From assembly GCA_016281055.1 (NCBI GenBank), contig JAEEHW010000108.1, forward strand, positions 1-64,000: 64,000 nt of DNA. Reading direction: 5' to 3'. The notes under the pieces were generated by a model, which saw only the letters and a list, made by a program, of their open reading frames with translations, searched no databases and had not been told where the DNA came from. Each line of letters starts with the position of its first letter. The first letter of the stretch is position 1. Shown here piece by piece: positions 14,609 through 48,956 of this stretch. Position numbers and translations under genes: made by a program. The DNA comes from Prevotella sp. GTDB taxonomy: Bacteria > Bacteroidota > Bacteroidia > Bacteroidales > Bacteroidaceae.

Positions 14609-14658
14609 CTTTGTACACCCTCAGAGGCTCGAACTCTGGACCCACTGATTAAGAGTCA
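14609..14658. repeat. attL: 50-bp direct repeat of the tRNA-Lys 3' half
   Basis: Identical to 20054-20103: CTTTGTACACCCTCAGAGGCTCGAACTCTGGACCCACTGATTAAGAGTCA. Confidence 0.95.
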
Positions 14659-14709
14659 TAAAATTATACATCTAAACATGTCAAAAAACATCAAAAAACT
14701 TTACTTTTA

Positions 14710-14743
14710 TTTGGCTGATTATCAAATATTTTGTAACTTTGCA
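14710..14743 (+). promoter_or_regulatory. Bacteroidota-type promoter for integrase
   Basis: -33 TTTG at 14710-14713, 20-nt spacer, -7 TAACTTTG at 14734-14741. Confidence 0.7.
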
Positions 14744-14796
14744 GCATAATAAACAAACAAACGGATTTTGGACTAAAAAAGGGCTTTTAATAGCCT

Positions 14797-14821
14797 AAAT
14801 CGTTCGCAAATCGTTCGCAAA
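14797..14821. repeat. left arm repeat AAATCGTTCGCAAATCGTTCGCAAA
   Basis: 25 nt identical to 19985-20009, tandem ATCGTTCGCAA units. Confidence 0.92.
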
Positions 14822-14829
14822 GTTGAAAT

Positions 14830-16281
14830 ATGGCTAAAAAAGTGACATCATTAACGACTAATCGTGTAGGGGATTTTAACCTCTCAATCATTCTCGACAA
14901 ACGAAGTAATAGAACCTCAGACGAATATCCTTTGTCTATTCGCTTTTACAGGTCTATCAACGGCAAGGAAGAACGTTACTTCCACCACCTTAACGAATTT
15001 TATACGGAAAAGTATTTCAATGAGGTGTGCAGCGTCAGTGCAAGCCGTAGTGCATTATTTCCCATAAAAAAGAAATGGGAAAGCATTTTGGAAGGCTACC
15101 GCACAAGATTGGCTAAAGTGGCAGAGAAGCAACAACTCTCCATGCCACTTATTCGGGCAATGCTTTCTGGTGTGGACATAGATGGACAGAAAAACATGTC
15201 CTTTATTGGTATATGGGAGGCTATCATTGCCACCAGGCGCAAGGAAGGACGTGCTGGCACTGCCGACAGTTACGAATGCGCTCTACGCTCTTTCCGAAGA
15301 GTGGTGGGGGATATTGAAGGCTTTTCCCTTAACAAGAGCGTAATTGCTAAATGGAATGACGGCATGAAGGACGGCATTGACGCACAAGGTAATTTCATTA
15401 AACAGATGTCTGACACCACAAGGGGTATCTACCTTCGTGCCTGTCGAGTGGTGTGGAACGAATGTGTCAAACAAGGTTTCCTTGCAGAAGTCGAATATCC
15501 TTTCGGCAACAAGAGTAATGACCTTATTTCGATACCACGGGGTAAAAAAAGGCAGAAGTCATACCTTAGTGTCACTGAAATGACGGAACTGTACAATGTA
15601 TTTATTGAAAAACGTTATCCAAAAGAATGGGGACCGATATATACAGAACGAGCACACCAGTCGTTGGGGTTATTCTTGGCACAATATCTTTGCAATGGAT
15701 GCAATCTCACGGACATTGCACGTCTTACTTATAATGCCGCCTATTGGCAGGACGGTGGCAGAACGCTTGAATTTCAACGCAGAAAGACCGCAGCACGCAG
15801 TAATGACAACTCAGTGGTTGTCGTACCCATCATAGAGCCACTCAAAAAAATCCTTGACGAGATAGCAGCATCACCAACAAAGAATGGGGTCGTTTTTCCT
15901 TTTATTTTCAGTGGAGTTATTGATGAGGAAGAACGTAGAAGAAAAATTCTCATGGAAAACTCCAACGTACAAGATAGGATGAATCGAATTTGTAAAGAAT
16001 TACTTGGTTGGGAGAAAAACGTTTCCGGAACCTGGGCCCGACACTCTTTTGCTACAAACCTCAAACTCGCTGGAGTCGAAGAAGAGTACATTGCCGAGAG
16101 CATGGGGCACAGCCACGGCAACGATGTGACCGCAGGCTACATGGATGTGTACCCTTTGGAAATTCGATACCGCAACAACATGAAGCTGCTCAATATAGAG
16201 GAAAAACAAGAGACGCCAGACTTAGATAAACTGTCGAAAACGGAATTGAAAGCTTTATTAAAGAAGTTGCTTAATATATAA
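14830..16281 (+). CDS. tyrosine recombinase/site-specific integrase
   Basis: C-terminal ARHSFATNLKLAGVEEEYIAESMGHSHGNDVTAGYMDVYP (R-H-x-x-R...H...Y). Confidence 0.94.
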   Translation: MAKKVTSLTTNRVGDFNLSIILDKRSNRTSDEYPLSIRFYRSINGKEERYFHHLNEFYTEKYFNEVCSVSASRSALFPIKKKWESILEGYRTRLAKVAEKQQLSMPLIRAMLSGVDIDGQKNMSFIGIWEAIIATRRKEGRAGTADSYECALRSFRRVVGDIEGFSLNKSVIAKWNDGMKDGIDAQGNFIKQMSDTTRGIYLRACRVVWNECVKQGFLAEVEYPFGNKSNDLISIPRGKKRQKSYLSVTEMTELYNVFIEKRYPKEWGPIYTERAHQSLGLFLAQYLCNGCNLTDIARLTYNAAYWQDGGRTLEFQRRKTAARSNDNSVVVVPIIEPLKKILDEIAASPTKNGVVFPFIFSGVIDEEERRRKILMENSNVQDRMNRICKELLGWEKNVSGTWARHSFATNLKLAGVEEEYIAESMGHSHGNDVTAGYMDVYPLEIRYRNNMKLLNIEEKQETPDLDKLSKTELKALLKKLLNI

Positions 16282-16329
16282 ACGATGTTCCCCACGCTAA
16301 AACATGGGAAACTTTAGCATTCTCATTAT

Positions 16330-17061
16330 TTACACGGGAGACTGTTTTTTATTCTTTCTTTTCTTTGGTGGCGTAGAACATCTAATACCATCAATGTGTT
16401 CAAACAATTGTGGCTCAACATTTGCCTTCATTGGGTCAAGAATAAAATCCACGCCTTCTCTACGTGCAAGTTTTGCAGCAGGAACGAAATCCGAATCACC
16501 AGCAAACAAAACAATAGTATCAACAAATCTTTTCAAAGCTAATGACGAAATATCGACACCTATCTTCATATCAATACCCTTCTGACGTATTTCAAGATAT
16601 ACATCGTCTTCCGCAAGGTCTTCGACACTAATCTTGCCCGATAAAAGTTCTTTCACCTTTGCTGGACGTAAATGCCAGTTATTATTATCTTTCAAAGTAC
16701 CAGTACGCAAGGCAACCTTACGCTTTTTCCTTAAAGCGTCAAGTAGTTCTTTTCGGAATTTGTATTCTGGAGTTTTACTAAAATCGACAGCTCGCTTGGT
16801 CAAGGGGTTATGGACTTTCTTGCCGAGCGGTTCGCAATCATAGTAGAAAATACGATATAATGTATTGTTTTCTCCTACATGTGACATTGCCATTGTATAT
16901 AACATATCAGCAACCTGCTCACCTGTCATAGAGCGGTCTTTATTATACAATGCGTTAAATCTCTTCACAAAAAAACCACCATCAATCAGAACTGCAATCT
17001 TAACAGGCGGAAAAAGTTTTGTCTTGCTCATTATATGATAAATATAAAAAAAAATGCTCAA
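16330..17061 (-). CDS. NYN-domain (LabA/DUF88-like, PIN-fold) putative nuclease
   Basis: IAVLIDGGFFVKRF ... KGIDMKIGVDISSLALKRFVDTIVLFAGDSDFVPAAKLARREGVDFIL; real start may be MSKTKL (~17031). Confidence 0.88.
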   Translation of the reverse strand: MSIFFYIYHIMSKTKLFPPVKIAVLIDGGFFVKRFNALYNKDRSMTGEQVADMLYTMAMSHVGENNTLYRIFYYDCEPLGKKVHNPLTKRAVDFSKTPEYKFRKELLDALRKKRKVALRTGTLKDNNNWHLRPAKVKELLSGKISVEDLAEDDVYLEIRQKGIDMKIGVDISSLALKRFVDTIVLFAGDSDFVPAAKLARREGVDFILDPMKANVEPQLFEHIDGIRCSTPPKKRKNKKQSPV

Positions 17062-17360
17062 GGGTCGGCATTTCCATTATCAAGAATAAGCGATTTGTCA
17101 CCGCTTTCGGATATGCGTAGCCATGAGCGTAATTATAATGCAAAGGTAATAAAAAAAAATAAACAAACAAATTAATTTCAAAAAAAGTGAAAATATTTAA
17201 CATTTTATAAAATATAATATTGTTTGGGGACATTACTCATTTGCTTCAAACCTCAAACCTCTGTTGGAGGAATTGCTTGGATAATTATAGTTTTTGAGGT
17301 TATTTGAGAAAATTTTCTTAAAAATCCTTAATACTTCGAGGTGTTTTGAAATAAATTTAT

Positions 17361-17700
17361 TATTTTTGCATCATCAATAACAGACTTTAGGTCTGTAAAA
17401 ATAAAAAATGGGCGAGAAAGCATGGACGACCCTCGCCAAGAGAGTTCTATTTATTGGGCTGGCTACACCGCCTTAAGCTGAGGGCAAAGCCGCTCGGCAA
17501 GCGACTAAAAACATCACAATTCGACCGCATGTAGCGATGTAATTATAAGGTAGGAACTCTCGCTTCTTTCTTCTCGCATTGTTTGCGAGGTATGCCGCAG
17601 ATATTGCGGCAATTCACTTGACTTGCGTTGGAAAAACGCGAGAAGGGAGGGGTTTATATAATATTAAGTTTTTAACTCGGTCGAATTGTGATGGATTACA
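17361..17700 (+). ncRNA. candidate structured leader/ncRNA upstream of the HTH gene
   Basis: -7-like TATTTTTGCA at 17361, then hairpins CAGAC/GTCTG 17381-17395, GGCGAG/CTCGCC 17411-17437, GAGAGTTC/GAACTCTC 17440-17561, CTCGCA/TGCGAG 17573-17589, GCCGCA/TGCGGC 17594-17610, CTTGCGTT/AACGCGAG 17622-17642. Confidence 0.5.
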
Positions 17701-18018
17701 ATGAGTACAGAACTCTTAGAGTTGCTGGAGCGTGAAATCGAAACACGCGCCAGAGCATTGGCAGCAGAAATGGTCGCTGCTAATGCGAAACCGCAATTGC
17801 CTTCGGACGTCGCACCGAATGGCGAGTTAATCACCCCTTTCACCTTCGGAGGCGAAAAGCTGCTGACAAGTCAGCAAGTGCAAGCGCTGCTCGGTGTAAA
17901 ATACCCAGCATTATGGGTAATGAACAAGAAAGGCACCCTCAAAAATCGGAAAGTCGGTGCACGAATTTTTTACAATTATGATGATGTGCATAAGCTGATG
18001 AAAGGAGGTGCGTGTTGA
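17701..18018 (+). CDS. helix-turn-helix (excisionase/MerR-like) DNA-binding protein
   Basis: LLTSQQVQALLGVKYPALWVMNKKGTLKNRKVGARIFYNYDDVHKLM. Confidence 0.8.
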   Translation: MSTELLELLEREIETRARALAAEMVAANAKPQLPSDVAPNGELITPFTFGGEKLLTSQQVQALLGVKYPALWVMNKKGTLKNRKVGARIFYNYDDVHKLMKGGAC

Positions 18019-18368
18019 CTATGGATGCAAGAACTGACCAGAAATGGGCAGAAATACTGCAGTATGCCCGTGAACATGCCACCGGGAAGGGGCTGCACAA
18101 GGGTTATCGTTGGCTTCAGGATGCCTACGAAGAATACTTCAACGACCACGAAGAACGTGTCGAGAAGGGCACCATGCCGTCATTCGGTGGTGTTTCTTTC
18201 AGCGACCATAACCGCACAGTGTTCGCTGCTCAGATAGCACGCTCATTGAGATACAACGAAAATGGCTATGGGGGTGCCAGGCTGACAGACGAACAGTTTG
18301 AGAAACTGACCGACACCCTGCAGTACATCAAGGAACACCCACAGCAGAGACAAGAACTTAGAATTTAG
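18012..18368 (+). CDS. hypothetical protein of integrative element (118 aa)
   Basis: ORF overlapping the HTH gene end; an internal Met at 18021 could be the start. Confidence 0.65.
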   Translation: MLTMDARTDQKWAEILQYAREHATGKGLHKGYRWLQDAYEEYFNDHEERVEKGTMPSFGGVSFSDHNRTVFAAQIARSLRYNENGYGGARLTDEQFEKLTDTLQYIKEHPQQRQELRI

Positions 18369-18377
18369 AAAAATGGT

Positions 18378-18456
18378 AAAAAAAGATCCCCGACAGGGGC
18401 AAATTGTCGGGGAGATTAAGCATTTTTTCAACGAGTTTCTAAATCTTTTCTCTTTA
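18378..18456 (-). ncRNA. candidate antisense RNA (ctRNA-like) opposite the rep leader
   Basis: Minus-strand promoter TTTG(18493-18490)-19 nt-TAACTTTGCA(18470-18461), then stem TCCCCGACA/TGTCGGGGA (18387-18413) followed on minus by TCTTTTTTT. Confidence 0.55.
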
Positions 18457-19463
18457 TGGATGCAAAGTTAGTAAAAAAATCTGAGATTCCAAATAATTTT
18501 AGAAATAAACTACAGAAAAGGAATAAATTTAAGTATTTTGGGTATCATCTGGCGGGAATGCTGTATTACCAAAATCCAAATAGCCAACTCGCCAAAGGGT
18601 ACAGGAACACCTTGTATTGCTGCAATATAATAGAGGTGACGGCAGAGGGGCTGGCGAAATCAAAATATTGTAAGAATCGGTGGTGCCCCATTTGCCAACG
18701 AAACAAAATGGGCGCACTCATCAATGCCTATGGGGAGAGGCTGCGGATGGAGAAAGAACTGTGGTTTCTCACACTTACACGCCCGAATGTGACAGCCGAG
18801 AAACTAAAGGCAGAGGTGGCACGCTATCAAGAGCTTTGGCGACAAATAGCCAATAGCCGTGAGTATCGGAAGGCAATGCGGAACGGGGTGATAGGCATTC
18901 GAAAATTTGAATGCACATACCACGGCAGGAAATTCCTCGAAGACGGCACTGCAGACCCTTGGTGGGATACTTACCACCCTCATTTCCATTTTTTCATTTC
19001 CAGCAAAGAGCTTGCCGATTTCATCCTTTTCCTCTGGATGCAACTCAACCCCGAGAGCAGAGATAAAGGTCAAAAATTGGAAAAAGTCGACAAGGAAGGG
19101 CGCTATCTGGAGATATTTAAGTATTTCACCAAATTAATAGCAAAGGATAGCGAGGGCAGGCGTTTCTTCGATGCCGTGCACATGAACACCATCTTTGAGG
19201 CTCTGCAAGGTCGGAGAGTGTATTTTCGGCTGGGCACTAAAAAAGCCTGGGGATGCGACGAGGTGACCGAGGAAGATGAATACCAAGTCGCAACCATAGA
19301 GACAGACGCAACGCCTTCCTTCTATGGGTGGCAAGAGTTCGAAAACGAGTTCGGTTACTACGACATCGAGACGGGCGAGGTACTGACCGAACTTCCCAAG
19401 GAGGGAAGTCTCTATGACATCGTGACCGATAGCGAGCATCGCATCCGCTCCCCCAACATCTAA
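18456..19463 (+). CDS. HUH-type (Rep_1 family-like) rolling-circle replication initiator
   Basis: CKNRWCPICQ zinc motif, HUH motif YHPHFHFFIS, downstream YLEIFKYFTKL candidate nicking tyrosine. Confidence 0.85.
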   Translation: MDAKLVKKSEIPNNFRNKLQKRNKFKYFGYHLAGMLYYQNPNSQLAKGYRNTLYCCNIIEVTAEGLAKSKYCKNRWCPICQRNKMGALINAYGERLRMEKELWFLTLTRPNVTAEKLKAEVARYQELWRQIANSREYRKAMRNGVIGIRKFECTYHGRKFLEDGTADPWWDTYHPHFHFFISSKELADFILFLWMQLNPESRDKGQKLEKVDKEGRYLEIFKYFTKLIAKDSEGRRFFDAVHMNTIFEALQGRRVYFRLGTKKAWGCDEVTEEDEYQVATIETDATPSFYGWQEFENEFGYYDIETGEVLTELPKEGSLYDIVTDSEHRIRSPNI

Positions 19464-19620
19464 ATATATTAAAAATATCAGTTATTTCTTTTCCCTTTTC
19501 TTGAAAAAAACAACTGTCATACACCAGTTGCGAACCGCAGGAAAGAGGGATGCAACACTCTTCCCTTTGCTTGGAAAACCAAAAACGCACAAAATGCCGT
19601 TTTTGTGCAAAAAATAGGTA

Positions 19621-19793
19621 TGTATAACGATGTTATACAAAGTTATACAAAAACAGCGTTTTGTTATACAAAAACGTGTTATACAAAAAATTTAGTTGTT
19701 AGCAAGAAGTCTTTTTGTTATACAACAAAAACTACAAACAAAGAAAAAGTTTCCGTATAACAACGTTATACATTGTTATACACTTTTTCTTTG
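19621..19793. repeat. iteron-like array of GTTATACA and bounding inverted repeat
   Basis: GTTATACA at 19632, 19642, 19663, 19678, 19717, 19765, 19775; inverted TGTATAAC at 19621 and GTATAAC at 19755; CAAAGAAAAAGT 19739-19750 / ACTTTTTCTTTG 19782-19793. Confidence 0.85.
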
Positions 19794-19858
19794 TTCTCTT
19801 CTTGAACTGCTCGCAGGCTCACAGTTGAAAATAATAAAACAAAAGGGATATGAAAAGT

Positions 19859-19892
19859 AAGCTTTTTTGATAAAAAAAGCTTTTCCTTGATA
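19859..19892 (+). promoter_or_regulatory. candidate rolling-circle double-strand origin
   Basis: AAGCTTTTTT-gat-AAAAAAAGCTT hairpin directly followed by CTTGATA (19886-19892), a pC194/pUB110-type nick-core match. Confidence 0.4.
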
Positions 19893-19984
19893 AGTTAGCA
19901 TAACTGCGTTACTTTATCTAATTACATTATAATTTCTGCAAACCGCATTCGTCAATGTTAAAAGAAATCATCAATATACATTAC

Positions 19985-20009
19985 AAATCGTTCGCAAATC
20001 GTTCGCAAA
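19985..20009. repeat. right arm repeat AAATCGTTCGCAAATCGTTCGCAAA
   Basis: Identical to 14797-14821. Confidence 0.92.
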
Positions 20010-20010
20010 T

Positions 20011-20046
20011 AAAAGAAAAAAGCACTTGCGATTTCTCGTAAGTGCT
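20011..20046 (-). terminator. element-borne intrinsic terminator downstream of tRNA-Lys
   Basis: Stem AGCACTTGCGA/TCGTAAGTGCT (20021-20046), minus-strand U-tract TTTTTCTTTT. Confidence 0.7.
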
Positions 20047-20053
20047 TGATTTT

Positions 20054-20103
20054 CTTTGTACACCCTCAGAGGCTCGAACTCTGGACCCACTGATTAAGAG
20101 TCA
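20054..20103. repeat. attR: 50-bp direct repeat in tRNA-Lys
   Basis: Identical to 14609-14658. Confidence 0.95.
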
Positions 20104-20131
20104 GTTGCTCTACCAACTGAGCTAAGGGTGC
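20059..20131 (-). tRNA. tRNA-Lys (anticodon CUU)
   Basis: GCACCCTTAGCTCAGTTGGTAGAGCAACTGACTCTTAATCAGTGGGTCCAGAGTTCGAGCCTCTGAGGGTGTA; cloverleaf, loop CTCTTAA. Confidence 0.96.
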
Positions 20132-48322: not shown

Positions 48323-48423
48323 TGTTTTATAAAAAAATAAATAGAACCTTAGCCTATATGTAAAGGTGTAAGTTGTTCCATAGTGCCTAACCCACGAGCG
48401 CTACTATGGTTGTTAACATGATA

Positions 48424-48575
48424 TTGGCAGGTATTCTGACTTCCTCCAGCTGTCATTGCCTTCCCACAAAGTCCACAAGGACTGTGCAGTGGCTGTTGTT
48501 AATGACGCTATAACAGAGGTTACAGCAGCGGGACTGTTCAGGATTCTCACCTGATTCCCTTTTAAGCATCGGCGG
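48424..48575 (-). ncRNA. cobalamin (AdoCbl-type) riboswitch
   Basis: Minus strand reads GGGAATCAGGTGAGAATCCTGAACAGTCCCGCTGCTGTAA...ACAGCCACTG...GTGGGAAGG...GGAAGTCAGAATACCTGCC: B12 box and conserved core. Confidence 0.93.
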
Positions 48576-48956
48576 CATGATAGTCATGCTGCGTCAGCAC
48601 CAAATCTGTACAATGTTGTTGTGCGAAGCAACTAATTCTTCGCTTTGTCGATATTGCAAGTGCAAAGTTACAAACTTTTCCTGAAACCACAAAATGTTTT
48701 TGTTTTCTATTATCATTAATCCTCTTTATTATTTGCAGGTCGTCCGGCGATGTTAGAAGACGCTTCCCTAAACAAGAAAACGTCGAAAGTACCGAGCGAA
48801 CGACGTTAAGACCATACAATATGGAGGAGAATTAACTTCGTACCGCGAGATTTCTTTTCCTATTTGACCATCCCCAAACCCCATTAAAATACAAGGTTGA
48901 CACAAAAACGAAATAAAACGAAACGTAAAATAGAACAACAAATAAAAGATTATTTT

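What the first reader, a model, noticed from the sequence alone, without database searches (positions are those of the whole stretch)
14609..20053. Minimal 5.4-kb integrative element in tRNA-Lys carrying its own rolling-circle Rep but no visible relaxase/mobilization gene
Seen: 50-bp identical direct repeats (14609-14658 = 20054-20103), one being the 3' half of a complete tRNA-Lys(CUU). Between them lie a tyrosine integrase, an NYN gene, an HTH gene, a hypothetical and an HUH Rep. Established: tyrosine-integrase elements often use tRNA 3' ends, and Rep_1-type proteins drive rolling-circle replication. Inference: a self-excising, transiently replicating element, satellite-like or dependent on helpers for transfer, differing from NBU/Tn4555-type elements that carry mobilization genes.
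Basis: partly seen in the sequence, partly recalled or inferred. Interest (0 to 1): 0.8.

Follow-up and report, generated by a model that had tools for sequence, protein, structure and literature searches.

The report
tRNA element with orphan Cas12f guide
A 5.4-kb mobile element inserted in a lysine tRNA gene of a Prevotella-like bacterium carries its own integrase and rolling-circle replication starter and, unnoticed at first, a gene for a CRISPR-Cas12f-type guide RNA, although no Cas12f protein that could use it was found in the element or in its host genome.

Summary
Observation confirmed: 50-bp repeats (one is the 3' half of tRNA-Lys CUU) bound a 5,445-bp element with tyrosine integrase, NYN, HTH, a small ORF and a Rep_1 HUH protein, and no canonical relaxase. 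It belongs to a modular family. A red-deer Prevotella MAG has the same element without NYN in tRNA-Asn; an integrase-HTH relative in tRNA-Met has Rep3 plus a MobV relaxase. A pC194-like nick motif lies near each of the closest Reps, supporting rolling-circle replication. 'No relaxase' is weaker than it looks, since Rep_1 proteins are reported to support mobilisation by ICEBs1. Satellite status is unsupported.

The surprise lies between NYN and HTH. At 17454-17535 is a guide-RNA scaffold (two hairpins and a covarying pseudoknot) that in Prevotella Cas12f systems sits between cas12f and a CRISPR array (three chromosomal loci, one phage contig). Here, and in three other integrative elements, it stands alone as a natural single-guide RNA. 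No Cas12f was found in the four host genomes (two are incomplete), and the guide has no second match in its own genome. It may be an RNA anti-CRISPR decoy, a guide for a foreign Cas12f, or a relic; which is not resolved.

The parts
14609..14658 (.). attL: 50-bp direct repeat, 3' half of tRNA-Lys only
   Evidence: same position relative to int in L006 and the other family loci
14797..14821 (.). left tandem AAATCGTTCGC repeats, candidate integrase arm sites
   Evidence: D1; identical repeats at both ends of L006; a different tandem repeat at both ends of L166
14830..16281 (+). tyrosine integrase, 483 aa
   Evidence: Pfam Phage_integrase and Phage_int_SAM_5; 83% identical to L006
16330..17031 (-). 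NYN-domain protein, cargo; absent from L006
   Evidence: Pfam NYN 1.3e-9, PHROG 5783 2.7e-86
17361..17368 (+). TAnnTTTG, Bacteroidota-type -7 promoter element ahead of the guide RNA (TATTTTTG; TAATTTTG in L006)
   Evidence: read from the sequence; consensus from general knowledge; no -33 element at the usual spacing was established
17380..17447 (+). 5' hairpins of the guide RNA (ACAGAC..GTCTGT; GGCGAG..CTCGCC)
   Evidence: fold; equivalent hairpins in L006 by eye
17454..17504 (+). Cas12f-type guide-RNA scaffold core: hairpin A (loop GCTACA 17462-17467) and hairpin B
   Evidence: models R1 and R2; covariation; same core between cas12f and CRISPR array in L214, L219, L220, L221
17512..17527 (+). 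16-nt arm CATCACAATTCGACCG, exactly complementary to 17678-17693; paired equivalent in L006
   Evidence: (I11)
17530..17535 (+). 3' strand of the pseudoknot (TGTAGC), pairs with the loop of hairpin A; the guide follows
17536..17555 (+). predicted guide GATGTAATTATAAGGTAGGA (length assumed 20 nt)
   Evidence: position by analogy with Cas12f guide RNAs; no second match in own genome at up to 3 mismatches
17678..17693 (+). second arm CGGTCGAATTGTGATG, 7 nt before the HTH start codon
17701..18018 (+). HTH_17 protein, probable excisionase/regulator
   Evidence: Pfam HTH_17 2.2e-5, PHROG excisionase families; present in L006, L165, L166, L167
18012..18368 (+). 118-aa ORF, no family
18456..19463 (+). 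Rep_1 HUH rolling-circle initiator, 335 aa
   Evidence: Pfam 2.9e-16; H176, H178, E219, Y223 invariant in 10 relatives
19465..19850 (.). strongly hairpin-forming region, candidate single-strand origin
   Evidence: DNA fold z -6.7; L006 has 29-bp and 23-bp inverted repeats at the same place
19886..19900 (+). candidate double-strand origin / nick site CTTGATAAGTTAGCA
   Evidence: same 15-mer (A/C at position 8) near rep in L006, L004, L002, L003, L007
19985..20009 (.). right tandem AAATCGTTCGC repeats
   Evidence: D1
20054..20103 (.). attR: 50-bp direct repeat within tRNA-Lys
20058..20131 (-). complete tRNA-Lys(CTT), the target gene

Best explanation
This is a compact integrative element of a modular Prevotella family built on one integrase + HTH pair that inserts at the anticodon-to-3'-end part of tRNA genes. 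The integrase recombines the 50-bp att site in tRNA-Lys (site shown by homologous elements; excision inferred), with the HTH protein probably acting as excisionase (inferred). The circle replicates by pC194-type rolling circle, Rep_1 nicking CTTGATAAGTTAGCA downstream of its gene (inferred from motif conservation and catalytic residues). Transfer most likely uses a helper conjugative element with Rep doubling as relaxase (inferred, not tested). NYN sits in a slot that holds defence-type cargo in relatives (inferred role). The element also encodes an orphan, naturally single-molecule Cas12f-type guide RNA (structure and kinship shown; expression and protein binding inferred). It would have to act with a Cas12f supplied by another genome, either occupying it as a decoy (RNA anti-CRISPR) or directing it with its own guide.
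For: att repeats in window, L006 (tRNA-Asn) and L166 (tRNA-Met); a tRNA 3' half just upstream of int in the other family loci that have enough sequence. Rep_1 with invariant H176, H178, E219, Y223; nick motif by rep whether coding or not. Relaxase role of Rep_1 plasmids in literature. Cargo slot: SLFN_AlbA_2, AbiEi, HipA in relatives. Guide RNA: 51-nt core shared by three elements; same core between Cas12f and CRISPR array in L214, L219, L220, L221; hairpins plus pseudoknot 95.9% paired over 7 sequences, 10 pairs changed on both sides, 0/500 shuffles; same architecture in the published Cas14a1 sgRNA. No Cas12f in the four host genomes.
Against: No circular junction or syntenic empty site was found. 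Rep as relaxase and HTH as excisionase are by analogy. The guide has no target found in own genome, IMG/VR or family loci, and spacers from Cas12f arrays do not hit the elements (few spacers looked at). Expression of the RNA is unknown. Two of the four host genomes are incomplete, so absence of Cas12f is not proven. In window and L006 the repeat:anti-repeat stem is short (about 3 bp), so binding to Cas12f could be impaired.
Confidence: 0.68

Rival explanations
1. The guide RNA is a decaying relic of a Cas12f (or TnpB-type) system once carried by the element family and has no present function.
For: No target found; no Cas12f in any of four hosts; repeat:anti-repeat stem short in window and L006.
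Against: The loop and its distant pseudoknot partner change together in window, L006, L167 and L211, and the core stays 90% identical in three elements whose integrases have diverged to 64-83%. A relic would lose this pairing.
Confidence: 0.2
2. The structured RNA is now a cis-acting leader controlling the HTH (excision) gene, exapted from a guide RNA, and needs no Cas12f.
For: It lies directly upstream of HTH in three elements; a perfect 16-18 bp inverted repeat joins it to the HTH start region, with compensating changes between window and L006.
Against: The Cas12f-specific pseudoknot is kept; in L211 the same RNA is not next to the HTH gene; L165 and L166 have HTH without it.
Confidence: 0.2
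3. The element is a phage satellite that hitch-hikes in particles of a filamentous or other ssDNA phage.
For: Rep is 27-30% identical to Reps of porcine inovirus records and 29-34% to Reps of two viral contigs that share the nick motif.
Against: The closest Rep outside the family (50%) is on pRGI00604, a plasmid whose other large ORF has a weak Relaxase-domain match. No packaging, coat or phage-derived gene. The int-HTH sister carries MobV.
Confidence: 0.1
4. The element is a static remnant that no longer moves.
For: No excision evidence; Rep very rare; NYN is in opposite orientation and could be late-acquired cargo.
Against: All genes open; att repeats exact over 50 bp; arm repeats, nick motif and catalytic residues kept as in L006.
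Confidence: 0.15

Closest known systems
Streptococcal IMEs with rolling-circle-initiator relaxases (PMC5357655)
   Same: Compact tyrosine-integrase elements, many in tRNA genes, whose only DNA-processing protein is an RCR-type initiator
   Different: Their domains are Rep_trans, Rep_2, PHA00330 or Viral_Rep, none Rep_1; most carry TcpA; Firmicutes, not Bacteroidota
NBU1/NBU2, Tn4555, MTnPi4 (Bacteroidetes IMEs, PMC5704250)
   Same: Tyrosine integrase; NBU1, NBU2 and MTnPi4 at tRNA 3' ends
   Different: They carry canonical (MobP) relaxases where typed; this element has Rep_1 and none
pC194/pUB110 family and pRGI00604 rolling-circle plasmids
   Same: Rep_1 initiator; CTTGATA nick motif (pC194 site from memory; pRGI00604 tested); Rep_1 plasmids reported mobilised by ICEBs1
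   Different: They are free plasmids without integrase or att sites
Type V-F CRISPR-Cas12f (Cas14a1 sgRNA, PMC12955468; Prevotella loci L219-L221)
   Same: tracrRNA core with hairpin A, hairpin B and loop-to-repeat-end pseudoknot just before the guide
   Different: No cas12f gene and no CRISPR array; tracr and guide are one molecule
RNA anti-CRISPRs (Racrs, PMC10651486) and viral mini-arrays (PMC11656645)
   Same: CRISPR RNA parts carried by a mobile element without its own effector
   Different: Racrs mimic single repeats and mini-arrays use host repeats; here a whole tracrRNA-like scaffold plus guide. The Racr paper's main text has no occurrence of Cas12 or tracr

Membership tests
Integrative and mobilizable element (IME) | site-specific integration with own integrase and att repeats | tested here: met
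Integrative and mobilizable element (IME) | own relaxase (canonical) or oriT that allows transfer by a helper | tested here: inconclusive
   no canonical relaxase; Rep_1 may serve (PMC5357655, PMC5714925); transfer not testable here
NBU/Tn4555-type Bacteroides IME | canonical relaxase gene (MobP where typed) | tested here: not met
   none among the ORFs
pC194-type rolling-circle replicon | Rep_1 domain with HUH and catalytic Tyr | tested here: met
pC194-type rolling-circle replicon | nick-site motif near rep | tested here: met
   19886-19900 and relatives; nicking itself not testable
pC194-type rolling-circle replicon | autonomous replication of a circle | not testable with these tools
   needs a plasmid or minicircle assay
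Type V-F (Cas12f) guide RNA | two-hairpin core and pseudoknot to the bases before the guide | tested here: met
Type V-F CRISPR-Cas system | cas12f gene and CRISPR array | tested here: not met
   absent from the element; no Cas12f match in own genome
RNA anti-CRISPR (Racr) | RNA inhibits a CRISPR effector | not testable with these tools
   needs an interference assay
Phage satellite | packaging or helper-phage-responsive genes | tested here: not met
   none among the ORFs

The most novel reading that the evidence does not exclude
Integrative elements of Prevotella-type bacteria carry native single-guide RNAs for Cas12f (or nuclease-dead Cas12f) proteins encoded by other genomes, using them either as tracrRNA-type RNA anti-CRISPRs or to redirect a resident phage's or host's RNA-guided protein.
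Probability: 0.5. Interest if true: 0.87.

Novelty: new variant of a known kind. Interest (0 to 1): 0.7.

Why it matters
It would place Rep_1-based integrative elements in Bacteroidota, where a 2017 review (PMC5704250) lists only canonical relaxases, and it shows type V-F guide RNAs travelling without their protein. That makes a concrete question testable: do mobile elements use whole tracrRNA-plus-guide mimics against, or together with, Cas12f? Natural single-guide RNAs may also inform the design of short Cas12f guides.

Tried and rejected
Rfam for the structured region: no match. Guide targets: no second match to the first 20 nt in own genome at up to 3 mismatches, no exact 18-nt match in IMG/VR, none in the family loci. 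Spacers of Cas12f arrays against all held loci: hits only within overlapping pieces of the same phage, none in the elements. Empty site with joined flanks: the flanks are not adjacent in relatives, so no syntenic empty site; an 81-bp stretch with the tRNA-Lys att site is 99% identical in relative G301. AlphaFold model of Rep: mean pLDDT 58.5, no useful fold match. Invertible promoter for the 16-bp inverted repeat: considered, but the stretch between the arms itself folds as part of one long hairpin. Integrase search in IMG/VR: none. Papers linking NYN genes, prophages and superinfection: none.

Full report
OBSERVATION. The 50-bp repeat 14609-14658 = 20054-20103 covers tRNA-Lys(CUU) from anticodon to 3' end; start-to-start distance is 5,445 bp. 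Inside each end lie tandem AAATCGTTCGC repeats, candidate arm sites for the integrase.

FAMILY. The Rep is rare: no other match in 301 family and 398 genus genomes. One contig of the GTDB collection holds a close relative: L006, a red-deer Prevotella MAG, has integrase 83% and Rep 73-74% identical, the HTH gene, 47-bp att repeats in tRNA-Asn(GTT), the same arm repeats, and no NYN. The integrase is common: 45 of 398 genus genomes at E<=1e-60. In the family loci that have enough upstream sequence, a tRNA 3' half lies just upstream of int, ending at the anticodon loop (Asn, Met and Phe types by eye). L166 is a complete 5.7-kb element in tRNA-Met with 66-bp repeats, carrying int, HTH, Rep3 and Mob_Pre. 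Other members carry DUF5906, DUF3987 or AAA_25 proteins after HTH. So int + HTH is a module joined to different replication and transfer modules. Cargo next to int in relatives is SLFN_AlbA_2 (L171, L174, L175, L176, L177), AbiEi (L168) or HipA (L170, L173), which suggests a defence slot; NYN fits this. Its family (PHROG 5783) sits beside cI in lambdoid phage 2B8 and is spread over E. coli, Dorea, Streptococcus and other phages and Campylobacter plasmids. Its function is inference.

REPLICATION. Rep is Rep_1. H176, H178, E219 and Y223 are invariant in ten relatives; the E-x3-Y spacing recalls pC194 (from memory). The 15-mer CTTGATA[AC]GTTAGCA occurs once in the window, at 19886, and near rep in L006, plasmid pRGI00604 (L004), L002, L003 and L007. 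In L002, L003 and one L007 copy it lies inside rep and encodes LDKLAQ; in window, L006 and L004 it is noncoding. Conservation regardless of coding argues for a DNA function, the nick site. Expected by chance in 5.4 kb: about 2e-5. The region 19465-19850 is strongly hairpin-forming and its counterpart in L006 has long inverted repeats; it may be a single-strand origin.

TRANSFER. No canonical relaxase is present. PMC5357655 reports 118 streptococcal IMEs with rolling-circle-type relaxases (none Rep_1) and cites Rep_1 plasmids mobilised by ICEBs1; PMC5714925 agrees. PMC5704250 states that known Bacteroidetes IMEs encode canonical relaxases. Rep acting as relaxase is the most economical reading, but untested.

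GUIDE RNA. The region 17370-17705 folds with z -5.9. A 51-nt core (17454-17504) is 90% conserved in window, L006 and L167; the exact core pattern is absent from the other 300 family genomes searched and from IMG/VR. A covariance model found further copies, and a relaxed pattern found phage contig L214, where the core follows a 439-aa Cas12f (Cas12f1-like_TNB 1.6e-22; PDB 9nzo 6e-68) and precedes a CRISPR array. A second model, built without them, found L219, L220 and L221: chromosomal Cas12f, then the core, then repeats with spacers, in each case. There the loop of hairpin A (GTTGGA) is complementary to the last six bases of the repeat (TCCAAC). In the orphan copies the loop pairs with six bases 62-78 nt after the core's start: GCTACA/TGTAGC (window), GCTGGA/TCCAGC (L006), GTTAGA/TCTAAC (L167), GCTGTG/CGCAGC (L211). 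Over seven sequences 95.9% of cells pair, ten pairs have changes on both sides, and no shuffle reaches this; slid controls fall to 28-49%. Caveats: I assembled that seven-row alignment with the variable middle left out, and chose the six-base partner by its complementarity, so the pseudoknot rows lean towards pairing; for one site alone a complement arises in 4-31% of shuffled tails. The independent support is that in the array loci the partner is fixed by the repeat end, and that the published Cas14a1 sgRNA (PMC12955468) reads GGGCUGCUUGCAUCAGCC-UAAUG-UCGAG...CUCGA-AACAA...AUGCAAC-guide: same order, same loop-to-end pairing.

ORPHAN STATUS. Neither the L214 Cas12f nor the phage dCas12f query finds a match in G000, G660, G423 or the genome of L006. 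The first query did find the 37%-identical phage dCas12f in G376, so its sensitivity is fair. Two of the four genomes are incomplete (G660 80%; the L006 MAG is 1.9 Mb). By model score the orphans lie nearer to the dCas12f-phage copies than to the chromosomal Cas12f loci (65-67 against 59-73 and 43-46 bits), but orphans and phage copies were in the model and the chromosomal loci were not.

FUNCTION. Three readings remain: decoy, guide for a foreign Cas12f, relic; and a fourth, a leader of the HTH gene. Kept pairing without cas12f speaks against a simple relic. Absence of a self target fits a decoy or a foreign target. I do not choose firmly between these two. The extra 16-bp pairing with the HTH leader, also present with compensating changes in L006, is unexplained and could couple the RNA to HTH expression.

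VERDICT. The element is a new variant of IME-like elements; its orphan Cas12f-type guide RNA is the surprising part.

Noticed in passing
L209 and L210 (G376:C48; same phage as IMGVR_UViG_2903631197_000003, 109.7 kb); L210:11063-12199 minus: A Prevotella phage with a 379-aa Cas12f homologue whose best solved relative is named nuclease-deactivated Cas12f (PDB 9n9c, 4e-49), five scaffold copies, three arrays of about 36-nt repeats and 30-nt spacers, and nearby a protein with HTH_17 and RNA polymerase alpha CTD domains (L210:13041-14000): a candidate phage RNA-guided regulator.
   Followed up: partly
L219, L220, L221 (G379:C32, G356:C192, G453:C39): Three chromosomal Prevotella-type Cas12f loci (456-495 aa) each followed at once by the tracrRNA core and a CRISPR array with repeats ending ATCCAAC.
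   Followed up: partly
L211 (G423:C27:118189-118239): A fourth orphan guide-RNA scaffold, in an element with a serine resolvase, AAA_25 and a primase-like gene and an HTH gene distantly like the window's.
   Followed up: partly
L002, L003 (IMG/VR 14-kb contigs): Viral contigs with a Rep_1-like Rep whose coding region contains the nick motif, so that the peptide LDKLAQ may be a footprint of the origin.
   Followed up: partly
L006:4239-4263: A third, 25-bp copy of the tRNA-Asn end upstream of the element, perhaps a footprint of an earlier insertion.
   Followed up: no
window 17512-17527 and 17678-17693: Perfect 16-bp inverted repeat between the guide RNA and the HTH start region; L006 has an 18-bp one with compensating changes. 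Unexplained.
   Followed up: partly
window 48409-48619 minus: Cobalamin riboswitch (Rfam 86.8 bits), ordinary.
   Followed up: no
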